Shown piece by piece: positions 4,073-21,502 of a stretch of 37,827 nt of DNA. The position numbers and the translations under genes are program-made. Origin of the DNA: Desulfobulbaceae bacterium (GTDB lineage: Bacteria > Desulfobacterota > Desulfobulbia > Desulfobulbales > Desulfobulbaceae); assembly GCA_011389815.1 (NCBI GenBank), contig JAABTP010000025.1:1-37827 (forward strand). Direction: 5' to 3'. The notes beneath the pieces were generated by a model, which worked only from the letters and a program-made list of their open reading frames with translations, had not been told where the DNA came from and searched no databases. Positions within the stretch are counted from its first letter, which is position 1. Every line of letters begins with the position of its first letter.

Positions 4073-5914
4073 ATGTCCGAACACATTGCCGCTATTTCAG
4101 ATATTGCTGCAAAGTATGATAACGACCCGAACCGCCTGCTCGACATACTCATTGATGTGCAGGCCCAGGAGCGTTGCGTCACTGATGATGTTACCCGGCA
4201 GCTGGCCCAGCAAGTGGGACTGTCCTGGGCTGATATCCACCAAACTGTTTCCTTTTATCATTTCCTTTCCGAGACACCACGCGGGGAATACACTATCTAC
4301 CTCAATAATGGCCCGGTTGCCATTATGCAGGGCTATGAAGAGGTTGCTGCCGCTTTCAGCGAGGCCGCAGGCTGTTCCATTGATTCTGTAACAGAAGATG
4401 GACGTATCGGCCTCTTTGTCACAGCAGACATCGGCATGGGCGATCAAGAGATCGCCGCCTTGATCAACAGGGTTGTCTTTACCTGCCTGACCCCGGAAAA
4501 GGCCCGTGCCTTGGTCAAAGATATGCAGGAAGGCTTGTCTGTCCAGGACATGGCCAGAAAACACAGAGAATATGGGGACGGGAATAATAGCCTCCCTGCT
4601 ATCCATTCTATGGTCCGCAATAATATCCAAAAGGCTGGACCAGTATGTTTAGGCCCATATGAAGTTGGGGTTGCCCTGCGAAAATGCGCTACGCAATCCC
4701 CGGAAGATATTCTTTCCCAGATCAAAGCCTCCAAGCTACGGGGACGGGGCGGGGCCGGTTTCCCCACGGCCATGAAATGGGAATTCTGCGCCAAGGCCCA
4801 AGGGCCGGAACGCTGCGTGGTCGCCAATGCCGATGAAGGCGAACCCGGCACCTTTAAGGATCGGGTGCTGCTCACCGAACGGGCAGAACTCCTCTTTGAA
4901 GGCATGGCTATCTGTGCCTATGCGGTCGGGGCCACAACCGGTTCCCTGTATCTGCGCGGAGAATACACCTATCTCAGGGAATATCTGGAACAGGTGCTGG
5001 AGCAGATGCGCGCCGATAACCTGCTGGGTAAAGATATTGCAGGCAAGGCAGGCTTTGATTTTGACATCCGGGTGCAGCTGGGCGCTGGCTCTTATGTCTG
5101 CGGCGAAGAATCCGCCCTGCTGGAATCTGCTGAAGGCAAACGGGGCGAGCCAAGAAACCGCCCTCCCTTCCCGGCCCAAAGCGGTTACCGGGCAATGCCC
5201 ACGGTCATTGATAATGTGGAGACCCTTGCCTCGGCAGCCCAGATCATTGATAAGGGGGCTGACTGGTTCAGCAATATGGGCACTGAGGAATCCACTGGCA
5301 CCAAGGTGCTGTCCATCTCCGGAGACTGCGACCGGCCCGGCATCTACGAGGTCGAGTTTGGTATCACCATTGGTGAACTGCTGGATATGGCCGGTGCCAG
5401 AGATCCACAGGCCGTGCAGGTGGGTGGCCCTTCCGGGCATTGCCTCAATGCTGACGCCAGGGACACCATGATCAGCTTTGAGGGCTGCTCCTCAGCCGGT
5501 GCAATCATCATCATTGGAAAGCAACATGATCTGCTGGCCATTATTGATAATTTTATGGAGTTTTTCACGGACGAGTCCTGCGGCTCTTGTGGCCCCTGCC
5601 GGTCCGGTACCTGGATGTTGCGCAATACCCTGCGCCGCATCAGGCAGGGTCAGGGCACGCGGGAAGATCTCACATCCATGCGCCAGTTGAGTGAAGTCAT
5701 GAAAAAAACCACCAAATGTGGTTTGGGCCATACTGCGCCCCATCCTATCCTCAATACTATGGATAATTTTCCCCATCTCTATGAGGCCCTGATCCCTGAA
5801 CAGAGTGATATCCGGGTCTTTGACCTGGAGGCTTCGATCAAGGCAGCCAATGCTGCGGTGGGCAGAACATCAGCGTCCAAGGAGACCAGGGAGAAAGAGG
5901 AGGAACAGTTATGA
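4073..5914 (+). CDS. hoxF: NAD-reducing hydrogenase diaphorase subunit HoxF (NuoE-like/NuoF fusion)
   Basis: A 613-residue diaphorase subunit of the cytoplasmic group 3d NAD-reducing [NiFe]-hydrogenase. It exchanges electrons between NAD(H) and the iron-sulfur chain through FMN. Residues about 1-145 form a NuoE-like domain whose usual four [2Fe-2S] cysteines are absent (the first site reads YLNNGPVAIMQGY). The same loss is known in HoxF of Cupriavidus necator. The NuoF part carries the FMN/NAD motif RGRGGAGFP (223-231), NADEGEPGTFKDR (252-264), GAGSYVCGEES, and [4Fe-4S] ligands C503, C506, C509 and C549. The ATG at 4073 has an AGGGAG Shine-Dalgarno; an in-frame upstream start is possible but adds 23 unrelated residues. 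It overlaps hoxU by 4 bp (ATGA). Confidence 0.95.
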   Translation: MSEHIAAISDIAAKYDNDPNRLLDILIDVQAQERCVTDDVTRQLAQQVGLSWADIHQTVSFYHFLSETPRGEYTIYLNNGPVAIMQGYEEVAAAFSEAAGCSIDSVTEDGRIGLFVTADIGMGDQEIAALINRVVFTCLTPEKARALVKDMQEGLSVQDMARKHREYGDGNNSLPAIHSMVRNNIQKAGPVCLGPYEVGVALRKCATQSPEDILSQIKASKLRGRGGAGFPTAMKWEFCAKAQGPERCVVANADEGEPGTFKDRVLLTERAELLFEGMAICAYAVGATTGSLYLRGEYTYLREYLEQVLEQMRADNLLGKDIAGKAGFDFDIRVQLGAGSYVCGEESALLESAEGKRGEPRNRPPFPAQSGYRAMPTVIDNVETLASAAQIIDKGADWFSNMGTEESTGTKVLSISGDCDRPGIYEVEFGITIGELLDMAGARDPQAVQVGGPSGHCLNADARDTMISFEGCSSAGAIIIIGKQHDLLAIIDNFMEFFTDESCGSCGPCRSGTWMLRNTLRRIRQGQGTREDLTSMRQLSEVMKKTTKCGLGHTAPHPILNTMDNFPHLYEALIPEQSDIRVFDLEASIKAANAAVGRTSASKETREKEEEQL

Positions 5915-6675
5915 GTGAAACGATTGAAACATCAAGTGAGACAATTACCCTAACCATTGACGGACAGGAAATCCAGGCAAAGACAGGCCAAACCATCCTC
6001 CAGGCTGCCTGTGAAAACGGTATATATATTCCCACCCTTTGCGCCCTGCATGCAGACAAGGAAAACGGGCTGAAATCGGATATTGCCCCAGGAACCTGCC
6101 GCATCTGCACGGTCAGGGTGAACGGTCGTACTATGGCGGCTTGCACCACCCCGGTTGCCCAGGATTATATTGTGGAGAATGACACCGAGGAACTCAACGA
6201 CCTGCGCAAAACCATTGTCGAGCTGCTCTTTGTTGAGGGCAATCATTTCTGCCCCTCCTGCGAAAAAAGCGGCTCCTGCGATCTCCAGGCCCTGGCCTAT
6301 CGCTATCAGATGCTCTCGCCCCGATTTCGCTATGCCTTTAGCTCCCGTGAGGTCAATGCCGAGTCTCCTAAACTCCTTTTTGACCGCAACCGCTGTATCC
6401 TCTGCCGACGTTGCGTACTGGCTATCACGACCGAGGACGGGAAACAGCTCTTTGGCTTTACCAAGCGAGGGGATAAAAGCGGGATTATCATGGATGAAGA
6501 GCTGGTCAAAAACATCTCGGAAGAGCAAGCCCAACAGGCTATGCACATCTGTCCGGTAGGAGCGATCATCCGCAAAGAAAAGGGCTTTGACACCCCCTTT
6601 GGTCAGCGGAAATACGATCATAATCCCATCGGTTCGGAGACGGTCTGCACAACCTGCAACGGAGAAAAATCATGA
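5911..6675 (+). CDS. hoxU: NAD-reducing hydrogenase iron-sulfur subunit HoxU
   Basis: A 254-residue electron-wire subunit homologous to the N-terminal part of NuoG. It links the diaphorase (HoxF) to the hydrogenase module (HoxYH). Three cluster sites are readable. The [2Fe-2S] ferredoxin site uses C44, C63, C66 and C78. The histidine-ligated [4Fe-4S] site uses H112, C114, C117 and C123 (GNHFCPSCEKSGSC). A further [4Fe-4S] site uses C162, C165, C168 and C214 (RCILCRRC and HICP). Length and cluster set match HoxU of the C. necator soluble hydrogenase (234 residues) with a slightly longer N-terminus. The start overlaps the hoxF stop and the stop overlaps hoxY, both as ATGA. Confidence 0.95.
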   Translation: MSETIETSSETITLTIDGQEIQAKTGQTILQAACENGIYIPTLCALHADKENGLKSDIAPGTCRICTVRVNGRTMAACTTPVAQDYIVENDTEELNDLRKTIVELLFVEGNHFCPSCEKSGSCDLQALAYRYQMLSPRFRYAFSSREVNAESPKLLFDRNRCILCRRCVLAITTEDGKQLFGFTKRGDKSGIIMDEELVKNISEEQAQQAMHICPVGAIIRKEKGFDTPFGQRKYDHNPIGSETVCTTCNGEKS

Positions 6676-11341: not shown

Positions 11342-12571
11342 TTATTCCTGAACCTTACCCGCAAGAGACATCTGAGCCTCAAGCGGCAATTCCTCACCAG
11401 TCAGCAGTTTATTCCAGTATACCCATTTGAACATCATTTTGCCCCAATGATTGGCCTTGGTATCACCAAGGAGAGTAAAGGGTCCCAGGCCGGGCAGGGG
11501 AAATTTACCAGGAAGCGGCTCGTACTCATAGTTGAAGTCAATGAGTGAGGCCTTACCAAAGCCGGTTTCAATAAAGCAGTTGGAATGACCGTCATAATCG
11601 GGCCGAACCGGCTCATCATTGATCTCGCGCATGAAATTTTCTATCATGATCTCGGCAGAGAAATGGGCTACAGAACCGGCCTTGGAGGTGGGAATGGTTG
11701 TGTTGTCGCCAAGGACATACATATTTTTATGGTGTTCCGCCTGCAAGGTATGGTTGTTCGTTTTAACGTATCCCACTTCATCCATCGCAACCCCGGAATT
11801 GACCAGATAGCGGGCCCCCACATTGGGTGGAATGGAAACAAGCAGATCCCACTCAATTTCATCACCAGCTGCCGAGATCAGCTTGTTGTCGTTGCAGTCA
11901 ACTTCGGCAAGGATAAAATCGGCAGTGACCTTGATGTTCTTTTCGTGCATCATTTTGGTAAAATAGGCAGATGCCTTGGGCTTGGTAAAAGCACCGGTCA
12001 TAGGGGTGACAAACTGGATTTCAATATCATCACGAACCCCTCGCTCGGTAAAGTACCAGTCAGCAAGATAGACAAATTCCAACGGAGCAACAGGGCACTT
12101 ATAGGGGAATTCCGCAATATCCAGCACCATCTTGCCGCTCTTAAAGCTGCGTAGTGCCTTTTCCAGCTTTGTCGCTCCTTCCAGGGTGTAAAAATCAAAA
12201 ATCTTGGTATGCCAACCGTCCATCATGCCCGGAACTTCTTCCGGAGCAAGGCCGACACCGGAACAAACAATGACTTTGTCGTATTCATATTTCCCTGCTG
12301 TGGTCTCAACGACTTGCGTCTCTGTATCAACACCGACAATCTCATCAATGACAAAATTAATGCCCTTGCCGATAAACTCACTGCGGGTGCGAATAATCTC
12401 TTCGGGCTTGTACATACCAAAGGGAATAAAGATCAGGCCAGGCTGATAAATATGCCTATCATCTTTATCTATAATGGTGATGGACCACTCTTCACGGTCC
12501 AGCTTTTTGCGCAGGTTGTTAGCAACCATTGTTCCTGCACAGCCCGCTCCAAGAATAACCAATTTCTTCAT
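11342..12571 (-). CDS. Sulfide:quinone oxidoreductase-like FAD flavoprotein
   Basis: A 409-residue flavoprotein of the disulfide reductase superfamily. FAD-binding GAGCAG lies at residues 8-13, and the second FAD motif is VLGDNTTIPTSKAGSVAHFS (about 286-305). Two cysteines sit where the redox pair of sulfide:quinone reductases lies: C159 in FPYKCPVAPLE and C332 in GHSNCFIETG. The tail holds an aromatic amphipathic stretch (HWGKMMFKWVYWNKLL) suited to peripheral membrane binding. It probably oxidises sulfide to sulfur or polysulfide and reduces quinone. An AGGAGAG Shine-Dalgarno precedes the ATG. The exact SQR type is not certain, and a related polysulfide- or thiol-dependent oxidoreductase is possible. 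Confidence 0.85.
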   Translation of the reverse strand: MKKLVILGAGCAGTMVANNLRKKLDREEWSITIIDKDDRHIYQPGLIFIPFGMYKPEEIIRTRSEFIGKGINFVIDEIVGVDTETQVVETTAGKYEYDKVIVCSGVGLAPEEVPGMMDGWHTKIFDFYTLEGATKLEKALRSFKSGKMVLDIAEFPYKCPVAPLEFVYLADWYFTERGVRDDIEIQFVTPMTGAFTKPKASAYFTKMMHEKNIKVTADFILAEVDCNDNKLISAAGDEIEWDLLVSIPPNVGARYLVNSGVAMDEVGYVKTNNHTLQAEHHKNMYVLGDNTTIPTSKAGSVAHFSAEIMIENFMREINDEPVRPDYDGHSNCFIETGFGKASLIDFNYEYEPLPGKFPLPGLGPFTLLGDTKANHWGKMMFKWVYWNKLLTGEELPLEAQMSLAGKVQE

Positions 12572-12937
12572 CGTTCCTCTCTCCTTTGAGACGTTTGTTC
12601 ACTGGCCAATAGGGTTTTGGCCTCTTTTTGACTACCTTTGGAAACAGGGAATGAGAATATTTTTATCTCTCAAGGCCTGGATCAACGTCCTGATCAAAAA
12701 TCAGGATCTAAAAACTAGAAAATTAGATAAGAGGTACCACAAAGTGCATTTCAGGTCAACAGGTGTTTTGAGCTTTTTTATACAATTACAAACAGTGCAA
12801 ACCCAACTCTTCAATAAATGGTGTGAACTGATGATAGGGGGGTTGGGGTTGACATCCCCTGCACATGGCTTTACATTGCTCCCGCATAAGCCCCTGACAT
12901 CGGGAATTCAACCAACCCCAGCCCAGTAGCAGATACC
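12572..12937. other. Divergent intergenic region with small inverted repeats
   Basis: This 366-bp region separates the minus-strand SQR-like gene from the plus-strand nuclease-helicase gene. It has a short hairpin CCTGAT-CAAAA-ATCAGG (12689-12705). TGGGGTTG at 12844-12851 pairs with CAACCCCA at 12913-12920. No credible gene is present. Promoters for both flanking genes should lie here. Confidence 0.55.
12849..12877 (+). promoter_or_regulatory. Candidate sigma-70 promoter for the EndoQ-UvrD fusion gene
   Basis: TTGACA (12849-12854), a 17-bp spacer and TACATT (12872-12877) lie 61 bp before the start codon. The -35 box overlaps the left arm of an inverted repeat (12844-12851 with 12913-12920), so a repressor or an mRNA leader structure could modulate it. 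I see no LexA-type box. Confidence 0.5.
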
Positions 12938-15900
12938 ATGCCCTCCATACCTTTTCCTTTTATCGCTGACCTCCACATCCACTCCCTCTACTCCCGCGCC
13001 ACCAGCAAGGCCAGCAACCTGCATGGTCTGGCAGCCTGGGCCGCCATTAAGGGTATCGACCTTATTGCCACCGGCGATTTCACCCATCCGGGTTGGTTTG
13101 CCCATCTGGTTGATAACCTGGAACCCGCAGAGCCGGGCCTCTTTCGCCTGAAGAAACAGCCCGACTTTGCCGAGCTGGCCTCTATTCTGCCACCGGGTGT
13201 CCAACCGGACTGCTCAAAAATTCGTTTCCTCCTCAGTGCTGAGATCAGCTCCATCTATAAACGAGGCGGTAAGGTGCGCAAGATCCATAACCTGCTCTAT
13301 GTACCGGATCTGGAGGCAGCCCGCCGGATCAATACTGTGCTGGCCGGAATCGGTAATCTCCATTCTGACGGACGCCCTATCCTTGGCCTGGACTCCAGGA
13401 TCCTTTTGGAAATCCTGTTGGAGCAGGCCCCGGAAGGCTTTCTGGTGCCTGCCCATATCTGGACTCCCTGGTTTTCCCTGTTTGGATCCAAATCCGGCTT
13501 TAATGCTATTGAGGAATGCTTTGACGACCTGAGCAGCGAGATCTTTGCCCTGGAAACCGGTCTTTCTTCTGACCCGGTGATGAACCGCTATATCTCGGCC
13601 CTGGATCGCTTCTCCCTGATCTCCAATTCAGACTGCCATTCTCCATCCAAGCTGGGCCGGGAGGCCAATATTTTTGCTACCGAACGCAGTTTCCCTGGCC
13701 TCAAGGAGGCCATGCGTAATCCAGTTGATGCAAGCGGCGAGCAACGTTTTCAGGCCACTGTGGAATTCTACCCGGAAGAAGGTAAATACCATTGTGATGG
13801 CCACCGCAAATGCGGGGTCTGCCTGGAACCAGCCCAAACCGTGGAAGCCGAGGGCATCTGCCCGGAATGCGGCAGGCCCATGACCATTGGGGTGCTGTAT
13901 CGGGTTATGGAACTGGCAGACCGGAAAAAACCAGTCTGGCCCAAGGGATCACCAGCTGTCCACAGCCTGATTCCCCTCCAGGAAATGCTGGGCGAGCTTT
14001 TTAACTGCGGACCCGCCACCAAGAAGGTGAACACGGTCTATGGCAAGCTGATCAATAGCTTCGGCTCAGAATTTGGAATCCTGCTGGAGACCCCCGTAGA
14101 GGAGCTGAACACGGCCTCGCCCTTGCTGGGCACGGCGATTCAGCGGGTACGAGAGAACAAGGTCATTCGTAAACCCGGCTTTGACGGTGAGTTCGGAGTG
14201 ATCCGGGTCTTTGAAGAGGAAGAGCGGGACCAGCTGGCAGGTCAGCTCAATCTCTTTGGTATGACCCCGGCTAAGGCCCGCAAGAAGTCCCCTGTAAAGA
14301 AGGTGATCAGGTGGAAAAAGAGCCAGGTACGTCCTATGCAGGCCAAGAGGGAACTCAACCTGGAGCAACAGGCTGCCGTGGACAGTCTGGCCCCTCGGAT
14401 CATTGTTCAGGCCGGACTAGGTACAGGTAAAACCCATACCCTGGTCCAGCGGATGAATCGCTTGCTGGGATCAGGACAGCAGGCCATTACCGTGATCACC
14501 TTTACCAATAAGGCTGCAAATGAACTCCAGCAGCGGCTGGCTTTGCTGGACCCGAAAAAATGCGGGGAAAAGAGCAAGGATAGCGGCCCCCCTTGTGTCC
14601 GAGTGGATACCTTTCATGGCTTCTGTGTCCACTGGCTGTGCAGTCATGATCCTGCCCTCCAGTTAGCTGGTCCAGAGATGCGGACCTGGATCTTCCGAAA
14701 ACAATACCCGCAACTCTCTGAGCAGGAACGGAGGAAACTCCGGCGTGAAGCGGGCCTCTTTTTGGCTGAACAAAGGATGCTGCCAGAGCCGATTGCCTGC
14801 CCGGAAACCCTGCGCCCATATTTTGCGTACCTCCGCGAGCATAGCCTGCTGGACCTGGACGAAATTGTCCCGGCCTGCACTACCCTGCTTCATAATGATA
14901 AAAATTTCAGCGAAGAACTACGTGCAGCCACAGTCCATCTGCTGGTGGATGAGTTCCAGGATCTCAATGCGGCCCAGTATGAGTTGGTGCGCCTGCTGGC
15001 AGAGACAGCCACGGTCTTTGCTATTGGCGACCCGGATCAGGCTATTTACGGGTTTCGTGGCTCCCGGCCTGCTTGGTTTCAGCATTTTATCACGGAGCAG
15101 GAACCCGAATTCCATCAGCTGGCAATAAACTACCGGAGCGGGGCGGATATTCTCCAGGCCGCAGGAGCGGTAATTACAGCCAATCACGTTGATGAAGAGC
15201 AGGAAACAAGGACAACCGCAGTCTCAGAGCATCCGGGCACTATCTTCCGCTATCTTGCCCCTCATGCCAAAGCAGAGGCCAACTTCATTGCCGGGCAAAT
15301 CCAGCAGCTCATCGGCGGCACCTCCCATCGGGAGATTGATCAAATTCTCGGTAACGAAGGCGGCTTAGCTTTATCTGAAATTGCAGTGCTCTACCGGACA
15401 GCCCGTCAGGCCGAAACTATTGCCCAAGCCCTGGCTGAACGCACCATTCCCTGTCAGGTGGTTGATGTCCAGCCCTTTTATCAGCGCAGGGAAAGCAAGC
15501 AGCTTTATTACTGGATCCTGCTGTCTACGGACCACATTGATGCAGCAGAACTGCTCTTTTTGCTGGCTCAGGAAAAGGGCATCGGTGCCAAGGGGATAAC
15601 TGCTGCTGAGGCCGTGCTCAGTGCAGAAAAGAAGGGGGCGCCATTGGACACTCTTGCTGCCAACGCAGCTGACCTGCCTAAAAATCTGCAAAAACGAATT
15701 GCTGCCTTTCAGGAACTTGCATCGCAAATGATACAACAAAAAACTGCTGCCAAGGCTGTAAATCTGCTCTGTGAAGAGTTTCAGCTCAACCGGGATGATC
15801 CAGACCTGGTTCGCTTTTGCCAAATGGCTGCCTCTGCATCTTCCCTGTCTGCCTTTGCTGACCATCTGCGCAAGCATCAGGATAACCTGATTTATGATGG

Positions 15901-16261
15901 ACGAGCCGAATCCGTACTGTTGGCTACCCTCCATGCGGCCAAAGGGCTGGAGTTCCGAGCTGTGTTTATGGTGGGTTGTGAAAATGGGTTGCTCCCCTTG
16001 ACTTCCCGGAGCGAGCTGAGCAAGGAAGCGGAACTGGAACATATCCAGGAGGAACGACGTCTTTTCTTTGTCGGCATGACCCGGGCTGCGGAAGTGCTCT
16101 ATCTCACCGGAGCTAAGGAACGACTGGGCTTTTCCGGGCTTGAGCAGCGCACGCCCTCCCCTTTCCTGAGTGAGATTCCACCTGAACTTTTACAGAATCC
16201 TTTGATTTTGCAGAAGCAACGAAAGAAAAAACGTACTGGGAAACAGTTGAGTTTGTTTTAA
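12938..16261 (+). CDS. Fusion of Endonuclease Q-like PHP nuclease with UvrD/PcrA-like helicase
   Basis: A 1107-residue fusion. Residues about 8-420 match Endonuclease Q: PHP metal motif DLHIHSLYSRATSK (11-24), TGDFTHPGW, SNSDCHSPSKLG, and a zinc site with C292, C295, C308 and C311. EndoQ nicks DNA 5' of deaminated bases. Residues about 470-1090 are a superfamily 1A helicase: Walker A GLGTGKTHT (493-501), DEFQD (from D671), GDPDQAIYGFRGS, INYRS, LHAAKGLEF and FVGMTRA. Two clamp-binding pentapeptides appear: QLNLF (436-440) in the linker and QLSLF as the last five residues. The ATG lies ten codons before the PHP motif with only a weak Shine-Dalgarno. Domains are seen; a nick-then-unwind repair role at deaminated bases is inferred. 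Confidence 0.9.
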   Translation: MPSIPFPFIADLHIHSLYSRATSKASNLHGLAAWAAIKGIDLIATGDFTHPGWFAHLVDNLEPAEPGLFRLKKQPDFAELASILPPGVQPDCSKIRFLLSAEISSIYKRGGKVRKIHNLLYVPDLEAARRINTVLAGIGNLHSDGRPILGLDSRILLEILLEQAPEGFLVPAHIWTPWFSLFGSKSGFNAIEECFDDLSSEIFALETGLSSDPVMNRYISALDRFSLISNSDCHSPSKLGREANIFATERSFPGLKEAMRNPVDASGEQRFQATVEFYPEEGKYHCDGHRKCGVCLEPAQTVEAEGICPECGRPMTIGVLYRVMELADRKKPVWPKGSPAVHSLIPLQEMLGELFNCGPATKKVNTVYGKLINSFGSEFGILLETPVEELNTASPLLGTAIQRVRENKVIRKPGFDGEFGVIRVFEEEERDQLAGQLNLFGMTPAKARKKSPVKKVIRWKKSQVRPMQAKRELNLEQQAAVDSLAPRIIVQAGLGTGKTHTLVQRMNRLLGSGQQAITVITFTNKAANELQQRLALLDPKKCGEKSKDSGPPCVRVDTFHGFCVHWLCSHDPALQLAGPEMRTWIFRKQYPQLSEQERRKLRREAGLFLAEQRMLPEPIACPETLRPYFAYLREHSLLDLDEIVPACTTLLHNDKNFSEELRAATVHLLVDEFQDLNAAQYELVRLLAETATVFAIGDPDQAIYGFRGSRPAWFQHFITEQEPEFHQLAINYRSGADILQAAGAVITANHVDEEQETRTTAVSEHPGTIFRYLAPHAKAEANFIAGQIQQLIGGTSHREIDQILGNEGGLALSEIAVLYRTARQAETIAQALAERTIPCQVVDVQPFYQRRESKQLYYWILLSTDHIDAAELLFLLAQEKGIGAKGITAAEAVLSAEKKGAPLDTLAANAADLPKNLQKRIAAFQELASQMIQQKTAAKAVNLLCEEFQLNRDDPDLVRFCQMAASASSLSAFADHLRKHQDNLIYDGRAESVLLATLHAAKGLEFRAVFMVGCENGLLPLTSRSELSKEAELEHIQEERRLFFVGMTRAAEVLYLTGAKERLGFSGLEQRTPSPFLSEIPPELLQNPLILQKQRKKKRTGKQLSLF

Positions 16262-19845: not shown

Positions 19846-20305
19846 AAACTCTCCTGATAAGGATAAATATTCTGTTGCTGCCAACCTTGGACAAAAATAA
19901 TTCCCAATGTCTCTCTGTTACCTTCAGATAGAATCAAGATCTATTGTACCTATTGCGTCATTGGAAGCAAGAAAAAATCCGAGTAATTTTTGAAAAAGCG
20001 GTATGTGTTCAAAGAAAAGCAATCAGTGTTGAGTAATACAAATCTGATCAATACAGATTATCCCTGAGTACAGGAAGAAAAATATTTCAACCGGTGACCT
20101 TACTGGCTTGAATCATATACGTAACATACAGGCTATGGGGGAACAGGATCATGAATATTTCATCTCCAGTCCCCTAACATTTTTTTTCTCCTGACCATCA
20201 ATTATGTCAATATTAAAAAAAGTAGCTTGCAGGAAACCGTTTTTTTGCTACAGTAAAAATTTTGGCGGCAACTCAAGGCAACATTAAAAAACATTGGATA
20301 ACAAA
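19846..20305. other. Gene-free divergent region between DUF533 gene and dgt
   Basis: About 460 AT-rich bases between divergently transcribed genes. No coding frame with recognisable content is present. It includes T-runs near 20180 and 20240 and the candidate dgt promoter. I see no riboswitch or RNA gene. Confidence 0.5.
20227..20254 (+). promoter_or_regulatory. Possible promoter for dgt
   Basis: TTGCAG (20227-20232), a 16-bp spacer and TACAGT (20249-20254) lie 51 bp upstream of the dgt ATG. Both boxes deviate from consensus. A GTAGC/GCTAC inverted repeat overlaps them. The support is weak. Confidence 0.3.
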
Positions 20306-21502
20306 ATGAATAAAGAGAGCCCGCTGCTTGCTGATGTGCGAGATCAACTTGCCAGAGAGGAAAAAAGCTGTTTATCTCCTTTGGCCTGCCTCAGTCAGGA
20401 GAAAATCCGCCGAACAAAAGAACGACAACAAGGCTATCGCCAACCCTTTGCAAAAGATGCTGACCGCATTCTTCATTCAAAAGCGTATACCCGCTATATT
20501 GACAAAACCCAGGTTTTTTCCCTGATTGATAATGACCATATCACCCATCGGGTTCTCCATGTGCAATTAGTATCCAGAATTGCCAGAACAGCAGGCCGTT
20601 TTCTCGGCTTGAATGAAGACCTGATAGAAGCCATTGCTCTGGGCCATGATATTGGCCATCCCCCTTTTGGACATGAGGGAGAACATATTCTTGATCGACT
20701 TTGCCAGGCCCACGGCTTACCTGGCTTTCGCCATAACATCCAGTCGGTTCATTTCCTTGACCGCATTGAAAAGCAAGGACGTGGCTGGAACCTAAGCCTT
20801 CAGGTGCTGGATGGAATTCTCTGCCATGATGGCGAGGCAAACCGTACAGCACTTGTGCCGGAACGATCACGAGAAAAGACCTTTTCTCATTTTGACCAGC
20901 TGCTGGAACAGGATGCCTTTTCAAAAAGCCTGGTTCCCATGACCCTTGAGGGCTGCCTGGTACGCCTGGCTGATACTGTGGCCTATCTCGGTCGTGACAT
21001 TGAAGATGCTATAGAACTGGACCTTATTACACGCCAGGAAATCCCAGAGACCTGTGCTGAAATATTGGGCAAGAGCAACGGCACCATTGTCCACAACTTA
21101 GTCAGTGACCTGATTAGCAATAATCTGCACCTTCGTCAAAATACTCCTGGCCCTTGTTCTGATTGTATCGGATTCAGCGAACAAGTAGGTGATGCATTGC
21201 TGGAACTCAAAAAATTCAACTATGAGCGCATCTATCGTAACCCGCTCTTTAAACCGGATTTTAAGCGAATTCACAGCTGTTATGAACAGCTTTTCTCCTC
21301 TTATCTGGATCAGCTCGTTACAGATCCGTTGTCCCAAAAAACAGAGCGGAGTTTTGGGCATTCCATGACACATACCTATCGTGACAATCACGCACCGGCA
21401 GCTATTGTGAGAGATTACCTTGCTGGCATGACAGATAATTTTTTTCTACACCAGGCTGAACTGCTTGGCTGCGATGTACCGGAGAGAAGATGCATAAGTT
21501 AA
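20306..21502 (+). CDS. dgt: Deoxyguanosinetriphosphate triphosphohydrolase-like protein
   Basis: A 398-residue HD-domain dNTPase of the Dgt family, which hydrolyses dNTPs to deoxynucleoside and triphosphate. Metal-binding HD residues appear as THRVLHVQLVSRIAR and ALGHDIGHPPFGHEGE, followed by FRHNIQSVHFLDRIEK and ILCHDGEA. A later HD aspartate is in RLADTVAYLGRDIEDAIELD. Length fits the family. I take the ATG at 20306; a TTG four codons upstream is an alternative. Neither has a clear Shine-Dalgarno. The 3' end overlaps the start of the CLC channel gene by 13 bp, so the two are probably co-translated. Confidence 0.92.
   Translation: MNKESPLLADVRDQLAREEKSCLSPLACLSQEKIRRTKERQQGYRQPFAKDADRILHSKAYTRYIDKTQVFSLIDNDHITHRVLHVQLVSRIARTAGRFLGLNEDLIEAIALGHDIGHPPFGHEGEHILDRLCQAHGLPGFRHNIQSVHFLDRIEKQGRGWNLSLQVLDGILCHDGEANRTALVPERSREKTFSHFDQLLEQDAFSKSLVPMTLEGCLVRLADTVAYLGRDIEDAIELDLITRQEIPETCAEILGKSNGTIVHNLVSDLISNNLHLRQNTPGPCSDCIGFSEQVGDALLELKKFNYERIYRNPLFKPDFKRIHSCYEQLFSSYLDQLVTDPLSQKTERSFGHSMTHTYRDNHAPAAIVRDYLAGMTDNFFLHQAELLGCDVPERRCIS

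What the first reader, a model, noticed from the sequence alone, without database searches (positions are those of the whole stretch)
12938..16261. One-protein repair machine: EndoQ-like nuclease + UvrD-like helicase + two sliding-clamp motifs
The sequence shows an Endonuclease Q-type PHP and zinc-finger module (residues about 8-420) joined in frame to a complete SF1A helicase (about 470-1090). A beta-clamp-binding pentapeptide QLNLF (436-440) sits between them and a second, QLSLF, forms the very C-terminus. Known EndoQ cleaves 5' of deaminated bases, and archaeal EndoQ works with PCNA. The fusion plus bacterial clamp motifs suggests that nicking at hypoxanthine or uracil, strand unwinding and clamp-guided resynthesis are physically linked. 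I know of no characterised bacterial protein of this design.
Basis: partly seen in the sequence, partly recalled or inferred. Interest (0 to 1): 0.78.

Follow-up and report, generated by a model that had tools for sequence, protein, structure and literature searches.

The report
EndoQ–helicase fusion with clamp-binding tails
Many bacteria carry one large protein that appears to cut DNA next to a deaminated base and then peel the cut strand away while docked on the replication clamp, which could supply the missing second step of a little-studied DNA repair route.

Summary
ORF 12938-16261 (+), 1107 aa, is an Endonuclease Q module (8-428) joined in frame to a full UvrD/PcrA-type SF1A helicase (470-1090), with QLNLF at 436-440 and QLSLF at the C-terminus. 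The Pfu EndoQ residues whose loss I saw reported to kill activity, and its base-selectivity pocket, are conserved. The fusion is widespread: the 80 best-scoring relatives, from ten or more phyla, are all fusions, and 42 of 148 genomes of the window's phylum carry it. The C-terminal clamp motif is in 72 of 78 and 28 of 38 homologues, against 0 of 30 ordinary UvrD/PcrA. New here: stand-alone EndoQs often end in the same motif, and in split two-gene versions EndoQ and helicase each carry a tail. So the linker motif is the old EndoQ tail: two clamp-binding partners were fused. Best reading: nick 5' of a deaminated base, helicase displacement of the damaged strand, clamp-guided refilling. Activity, clamp binding and polarity are inferred. 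My paper searches found no description of the fusion. A new variant of known parts.

The parts
12938..16261 (+). Fusion gene, 1107 aa: EndoQ-like lesion endonuclease + UvrD-like SF1A helicase
12959..14221 (+). EndoQ module, residues 8-428: PHP nuclease, Zn ribbon, C-terminal helical domain
   Evidence: phmmer to 5zb8/7k30; model aligns to 5zb8 Z 42.7
12968..12985 (+). PHP motif I, DLHIHS (D11, H13, H15)
   Evidence: 80 of 81, one gap; place
13235..13252 (+). E102, equals Pfu E76 (metal ligand)
   Evidence: 81 of 81; mapping
13277..13294 (+). H117, equals Pfu H84 (metal ligand)
   Evidence: 81 of 81; mapping
13448..13471 (+). PAHIWTPW, H173 equals Pfu H139 (metal ligand and base pocket)
   Evidence: 81 of 81; mapping
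13553..13573 (+). ETGLSSD, G208 and S210 equal Pfu G169 and S171 (base-selectivity pocket)
   Evidence: 81 of 81; mapping
13622..13639 (+). SNSDCH, D232 equals Pfu D193 (N in the 7k30/7k31 chains)
   Evidence: 81 of 81
13799..13870 (+). Zn ribbon, ligands probably H289, C292, C308, C311 (His where the archaeal enzyme has its first Cys)
14243..14257 (+). Linker clamp-binding pentapeptide QLNLF (436-440)
   Evidence: model block 431-440 has mean pLDDT 67, then 449-467 under 50
14354..16207 (+). UvrD-like SF1A helicase core, residues about 473-1090
14411..14434 (+). Walker A, AGLGTGKT (492-499); L494 is Pro in 80 of 81 rows
14945..14968 (+). Walker B, VDEFQDLN (670-677)
16244..16258 (+). C-terminal clamp-binding pentapeptide QLSLF (1103-1107)
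   Evidence: pLDDT under 50 for 1101-1107

Best explanation
A clamp-tethered excision-repair enzyme for deaminated bases. The EndoQ half flips out uracil, hypoxanthine, xanthine or an AP site and cuts the backbone on its 5' side, leaving a 3'-OH and a 5'-phosphate end that carries the lesion. The fused UvrD-like motor then loads at the nick, moves 3' to 5' on the intact strand, and so peels off the lesion-bearing strand. The two QLxLF tails hold the protein on the beta clamp, so the 3'-OH can be extended by a clamp-bound polymerase and the flap trimmed and sealed. Shown here: domain make-up, intact active sites, conserved tails, and that the linker motif stands where stand-alone EndoQs end. 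Inferred: substrate, polarity, clamp binding, order of steps. In archaea a PCNA-bound polymerase was proposed to displace the strand; here the helicase would do it.
For: Active site: Pfu E76, H84, H139, D193, G169, S171 map to E102, H117, H173, D232, G208, S210, all invariant in 81 of 81 rows. Roles of E76, H84, H139 and the pocket: PMC8307549 section 15. The essential archaeal Asp: PMC6202378 passages. Complete SF1A motor: Z 36-39 to the best nine PcrA/UvrD/Rep entries over 542-588 residues; Walker A Lys and Thr 81 of 81, Walker B Asp and Glu 80 of 81 with one gap. Clamp tails: 72 of 78 and 28 of 38 strict against 0 of 30 UvrD/PcrA controls; the C-terminal motif and the segment after the linker motif are low-confidence, flexible stretches. 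Rosetta-stone evidence: in L129, L133 and L138 EndoQ and a separate helicase gene on the same strand are neighbours and each ends in a clamp motif; L098/L234 is a fourth such pair. These helicases group with the fused ones apart from 30 UvrD/PcrA frames. A dnaN-like gene lies within 6 kb in 13 of 120 loci (Pfam check on 4 of the 13). Archaeal precedent: EndoQ binds PCNA by a C-terminal motif and is stimulated by it (PMC4858679 passages). A helicase step after EndoQ was drawn in one of two models in 2015 (PMC4357722 passages).
Against: I saw no activity reported for any fusion. The linker motif fails the relaxed rule in 39 of 120 fusions; among these are all three Gastranaerophilales, three Micromonosporaceae outside Micromonospora, and Desulfovibrio-type members. 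Stand-alone EndoQ genomes mostly show no clamp-tailed partner helicase: 3 by the relaxed rule and 1 weak case in 15 genomes, against 0 in 15 EndoQ-less genomes, with only the best loci read. 36 of 42 fusion genomes also keep a UDG-superfamily match, so uracil repair may be redundant. The score to TIGR00375 is under its curated cut-off. The window's own Walker A has Leu where 80 of 81 rows have Pro. The EndoQ tree needs 11 changes of the fused state, so the link is not always kept.
Confidence: 0.62

Rival explanations
1. Fork- or nascent-strand quality control: the clamp-held protein scans freshly made DNA behind the fork for misincorporated dUMP or dIMP and replaces the tract; its nicks could also mark the new strand for mismatch repair.
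For: Two clamp tails in one chain; linkage to dnaN, and gyrB, in some lineages.
Against: Nothing tested here separates it from ordinary repair of deaminated bases; such tails are shared by many repair proteins (family knowledge).
Confidence: 0.15
2. Anti-phage defence: the nuclease-helicase cuts and unwinds uracil-containing or otherwise modified phage DNA, as Gabija or other helicase-nuclease pairs do.
For: PADLOC GajB models match the helicase half, up to 236.6 bits; an antiviral role for Bacillus EndoQ has been suggested (PMC8307549 section 15).
Against: The pcrA model scores higher (270.5 bits); the flanking genes are an SQR and an aconitase; recurrent neighbours in some lineages are dnaN/gyrB or a nadD-like gene; no match to the EndoQ module in 72,556 plasmid records and no phage record covering 80% of the query among 50,697; one strong match in each of 12 genomes checked.
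Confidence: 0.08
3. Broad AP-site or oxidised-base endonuclease with a helicase, in which deaminated bases are minor substrates.
For: Pfu EndoQ also cuts AP sites and some oxidised pyrimidines (PMC8307549 section 15), and Hx and U were less suitable substrates than an abasic analogue in one kinetic study (PMC11354406 passages).
Against: The residues that exclude T and A from the pocket are invariant.
Confidence: 0.1

Closest known systems
Archaeal and Bacillus Endonuclease Q (PfuEndoQ, TkoEndoQ, B. pumilus EndoQ; TIGR00375 / COG1379)
   Same: Fold, catalytic residues, base pocket, Zn ribbon, clamp-type motif after the last domain
   Different: The solved one is about 400 aa without a motor; here a UvrD-like helicase is fused, and His stands where the archaeal Zn ribbon has its first Cys
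UvrD / PcrA / Rep SF1A helicases
   Same: Full-length SF1A motor by structure alignment, with the SF1 motifs
   Different: Separate branch in the tree, equivalog cut-offs not reached, QLxLF tail present (0 of 30 controls have the strict motif)
RecBCD with its beta-clamp motif in RecB (PMC13254535, passages)
   Same: A helicase-nuclease reported to dock on the beta clamp
   Different: Unrelated nuclease, acts at double-strand ends; the motif is in the RecB nuclease domain
Pol III alpha with internal and C-terminal clamp motifs
   Same: Two clamp motifs in one chain (PMC13254535 passages)
   Different: A polymerase

Membership tests
Endonuclease Q | PHP metal ligands and essential residues (Pfu E76, H84, H139, D193) | tested here: met
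   E102, H117, H173, D232, each 81 of 81 (roles)
Endonuclease Q | Base-selectivity pocket (Pfu H139, G169, S171) | tested here: met
   H173, G208, S210, each 81 of 81
Endonuclease Q | Zn ribbon after the PHP domain | tested here: met
   H289-x2-C292 ... C308-x2-C311; His at 289 in 112 of 113 fusions, 54 of 54 stand-alone and 4 of 4 tandem rows
Endonuclease Q | Fold | tested here: met
   5zb8 Z 42.7, rmsd 3.1 over 389 residues
Endonuclease Q | Clamp/PIP-type motif at the end of the EndoQ module | tested here: met
   QLNLF 436-440; relaxed rule in 81 of 120 fusions
Endonuclease Q | Cleavage 5' of deaminated bases | not testable with these tools
   bench assay needed
NCBIfam TIGR00375 | curated score cut-off 326.6 bits | tested here: not met
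   169.4 bits; 0 of 148 genomes of the phylum sample reach it. Hence called EndoQ-like, not a TIGR00375 member
UvrD/PcrA/Rep orthologues | NCBIfam equivalog cut-offs (pcrA 911.2, uvrD 1144.45, rep 951.45 bits) | tested here: not met
   270.5, 246.9 and 237.3 bits; separate branch. But 0 of 59 genomes of the phylum reach the pcrA cut-off either
SF1A UvrD-like helicases (Pfam PF00580/PF13361) | gathering score and SF1 motifs | tested here: met
   161.8 and 135.7 bits; motifs
SF1A UvrD-like helicases | 3' to 5' unwinding | not testable with these tools
   bench assay needed
Gabija | GajB beside a GajA nuclease | tested here: not met
   adjacent genes are SQR and aconitase
Beta-clamp clients | Pentapeptide close to QL[SD]LF (consensus recalled) | tested here: met
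Beta-clamp clients | Binding to DnaN | not testable with these tools
   no complex prediction available

The most novel reading that the evidence does not exclude
A further, glycosylase-free excision-repair route in bacteria: one polypeptide does incision and strand displacement while docked by two tails on the clamp (possibly on both sites of the dimer, or by hand-over between nuclease and motor), acting on nascent DNA as a replication-coupled deaminated-base editor that can also give the strand signal for mismatch repair.
Probability: 0.17. Interest if true: 0.88.

Novelty: new variant of a known kind. Interest (0 to 1): 0.7.

Why it matters
What happens after EndoQ cuts has been open since its discovery; published models offer polymerase strand displacement, or a second cut by EndoV followed by an unnamed helicase (PMC4357722; PMC4858679; passages). 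This family offers a helicase and ties it, with EndoQ, to the clamp. It also suggests that EndoQ, described in those papers as mainly archaeal and absent from most bacteria, is common in one bacterial phylum (104 of 148 genomes with a match). The window's genome, 97% complete, has no EndoV match, so a two-cut route by EndoV seems not available there.

Tried and rejected
Chance motifs: rejected (shuffles and UvrD controls). A chimeric or frameshift artefact: rejected, since the same fusion recurs in unrelated assemblies including records titled complete genomes of Desulfonema magnum and Dactylosporangium vinaceum. Operon partner upstream: ORF 12474-12929 matches no Pfam or NCBIfam family and overlaps the SQR gene; taken as spurious. 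Own promoter: TTGACA-17-TACATT at 12849-12877, but the number of hits is what shuffles give. UDG or EndoV replacement: EndoV in 13 of 42 fusion genomes, 29 of 61 other EndoQ genomes, 23 of 45 others (fused against the rest, Fisher p 0.066; partial EndoV matches over the cut-off counted); no UDG-superfamily match in 6 of 42, 0 of 61, 5 of 45 (p 0.076), not significant and five of the six belong to one family. Phage or plasmid origin: no support. The helicase's GIG motif (recalled as duplex-binding) is not conserved in the fusions. The largest neighbour cluster (32 loci, both sides and both strands) was not identified and not used.

Selection and dropped rows. The 80 loci are the best-scoring of at least 584 against the full-length query, so they favour fusions. 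L020 and L031 (cut) and the window were left out of the first tail count; L112 and L115 (cut by the locus end) and L166 (early stop) out of the second. L181 and L175 look like the same records as L010 and L014 (equal contig lengths); they were removed but not, so the two tail sets share at least two proteins and the 120 loci hold two pairs of doubles. One search also left out L190 and used L231-L233 in place of L112, L115, L168. Seven Micromonosporaceae rows were left out of A1; L014, L020 and L031 out of A1. G002 and G013 (cut frames) and G118 (marginal match, counted as without EndoQ) were not fetched. Tail control L190 ends in masked letters and counted as no motif.
Full report
What is there. 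The frame 12938-16261 (+) encodes 1107 residues without interruption. The first 428 match Pyrococcus furiosus Endonuclease Q (5zb8, 7k30; E about 1e-49) and residues 470-1090 match UvrD/PcrA/Rep helicases. A model from 71 fusion sequences has mean pLDDT 87.9 and pTM 0.60: both modules are well predicted, their mutual placement less surely. Structure comparison gives 5zb8 at Z 42.7, the best nine PcrA/UvrD/Rep entries at Z 36-39, and three further ones at 31-36.

Active sites. A review lists E76, H84 and H139 of Pfu EndoQ as zinc ligands whose change to alanine abolishes activity, and H139, G169, S171 as the residues that keep T and A out of the pocket (PMC8307549, section 15, read whole). Alignment places these at E102, H117, H173, G208, S210. 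D193, which the 7k30 and 7k31 chains carry as N and whose equivalent was mutated as the essential residue in the Methanosarcina enzyme (PMC6202378, passages), is D232. All are invariant in the 81-row alignment. In the Zn ribbon the place of the first archaeal cysteine holds histidine in 112 of 113 fusions, 54 of 54 stand-alone and 4 of 4 tandem rows, so this is a trait of these bacterial proteins, not damage. Walker A and B and the other SF1 motifs are intact, though the window's own Walker A has Leu494 where 80 of 81 rows have Pro.

How common. Each of the 80 carries EndoQ and helicase sequence in one frame; L014 and L031 are cut by contig ends and L020 stops early. Their record titles include Desulfobulbaceae and other Desulfobacterota, Micromonosporaceae, KSB1, Sedimentisphaerales, Fodinibius, Gastranaerophilales, Caldilineales, Spirochaetaceae, Polyangium, Elusimicrobia, Aerophobetes, Binatia, Cytophagales and SAR324. 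In 148 genomes of the window's phylum (Desulfobacterota, judged by its nearest named relatives) TIGR00375 matched 104. Of these, 42 including the window are fused; 59 have an unfused frame; 2 are cut frames not fetched and 1 is marginal. In 149 genomes of the phylum of Micromonospora halophytica only 4 matched, 2 of them in frames over 1100 aa, one being that genome itself, so the fusion is patchy there. Each of 12 genomes reached from 12 loci holds one strong match.

The two clamp motifs. In the last 15 residues the strict motif is in 72 of 78 and 28 of 38 fusions, the relaxed motif in 75 of 78 and 32 of 38; shuffled tails give 0.2 and 0.1 (strict), 3.4 and 1.4 (relaxed). The rule was set after the tails had been seen. 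Of 30 UvrD/PcrA control frames from the same phylum, 0 are strict and 1 relaxed. In the linker the relaxed motif is in 81 of 120 against 5.1 expected. Stand-alone EndoQs end in the relaxed motif in 43 of 58, the strict one in 26 of 58. Thus the linker motif stands where a stand-alone EndoQ ends.

Split versions. In L129, L133 and L138 EndoQ stops right after its motif (QLSLF, QLKLF, QLGLF) and a separate helicase frame on the same strand overlaps or follows within about 200 bp, ending in QMKLF, QLSLFSR and QLTLF. L098/L234 is a fourth pair, its EndoQ ending QMRLL and its helicase QMELFS. A fifth, L141, sits inside a fused group and is probably a broken fusion. Some other genomes with unfused EndoQ hold an unlinked helicase with a similar tail; seven, hand-picked, were kept for the tree (L217-L223): four tails match the relaxed rule (L220-L223), L217 is cut by the contig end, and L218 and L219 only resemble it. 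In a FastTree of 164 helicases the fused, split and these unlinked ones lie together (support 92, with one further long-branch helicase, L227; 99 for the 124 that include all fusions), apart from the 30 UvrD/PcrA frames (29 controls and the window genome's own); the four split genes lie outside the group of 124. The root is a midpoint, several branches are long, and support for the outer split is only 92. In the EndoQ tree the fused state needs 11 changes, so losses, re-splits or broken assemblies also occur. A less selective test, 15 EndoQ-less and 15 stand-alone genomes, reading only the best loci of each, found clamp-tailed helicases in 0 and in 4 (L285, L286 and the earlier L223 by the relaxed rule, L282 weak): a partner helicase is not obligatory for a stand-alone EndoQ.

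Neighbourhood. In 13 of 120 fusion loci a dnaN-like gene lies within 6 kb, in 10 of those with a gyrB-like gene; 4 dnaN and 1 gyrB were checked by Pfam. Eleven of the 13 share one arrangement, so this is perhaps two independent cases. In 8 loci a nadD-like gene precedes the fusion, 7 of them within 300 bp (one checked by Pfam). In the window the flanks are an SQR (minus strand) and aconitase; the dnaN match of this genome is on another contig. Such loose context fits a housekeeping gene.

Mechanism. Published archaeal models have EndoQ on PCNA nick 5' of the lesion, PolB displace the strand, Fen1 trim and ligase seal (PMC4858679, passages); a second model of 2015 adds a 3' cut by EndoV and removal by a helicase (PMC4357722, passages). 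With a 3'-to-5' motor (polarity from UvrD family knowledge, not tested) loaded on the intact strand at the nick, the strand displaced is the one that carries the lesion at its 5' end. A bacterial replicase displaces strands poorly (recalled), so a built-in helicase would replace PolB's displacement. Two tails could occupy both sites of a clamp dimer or hand over from nuclease to motor; the C-terminal tail and the linker after 448 are flexible in the model.

Known or new. Searches of the paper library for 'Endonuclease Q' with 'helicase' (8 papers), 'EndoQ' (16), 'PHP domain' + 'UvrD' + 'fusion' (3), 'YqxK' (2), 'EndoQ' + 'Bacillus pumilus' (4), 'COG1379' or 'TIGR00375' (2), 'Endonuclease Q' + 'UvrD' (3) and 'PHP domain' + 'helicase' + 'sliding clamp' + 'fused' (2) showed no title or abstract opening on such a fusion. 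I read passages of six of these papers and one whole section, not all texts. The library lacks most subscription papers. The 2015 paper draws a Desulfovibrio homologue in Figure 9A; figures are not held, so I cannot say whether it was drawn as a fusion. Clamp motifs in bacterial EndoQ homologues were reported in 2016.

Verdict. Real, conserved and functional-looking; the parts are known, the combination and its evolutionary history appear undescribed in what I could search. The catalytic and clamp claims are inference from strong conservation.

Noticed in passing
window 11342-12571 (-): Scores 628.5 bits, over the 525 cut-off, to NF049943 'type III sulfide quinone reductase, selenoprotein subtype', yet the frame has no in-frame TGA, so this copy seems to lack selenocysteine.
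   Followed up: partly
L135, L137, L139, L142, L143, L144 (unfused EndoQ frames): Nested among fused EndoQs in the tree, with no helicase in the fetched stretch and no motif in the last 15 residues (L139 keeps QRSIF before a short tail): possible helicase losses, or assembly breaks.
   Followed up: partly
L153, L231, L232 (family f30): Fusions on a long common branch; the helicases of L231 and L232 score only 331-363 bits to the fusion-helicase profile; could be a separate fusion event.
   Followed up: no
L051 4696-5538 (-), with dnaN at 5557-6675 (-): In a Gastranaerophilales genome an AP_endonuc_2-fold gene (PF01261) and dnaN lie just beyond the fusion gene on the other strand; could be an AP endonuclease, but the Pfam fold is broad.
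   Followed up: no
L145 5476-6793 (-), genome G088: EndoQ is split over two overlapping frames in a one-contig genome: frameshift or decay; the second part keeps QQSLF near its end.
   Followed up: no
window 14411-14434 (+): Walker A reads AGLGTGKT; the Leu is Pro in 80 of 81 aligned rows.
   Followed up: no
window 20294-21502 (+): dGTP triphosphohydrolase-family gene, a nucleotide-pool enzyme, about 4 kb downstream of the fusion.
   Followed up: no
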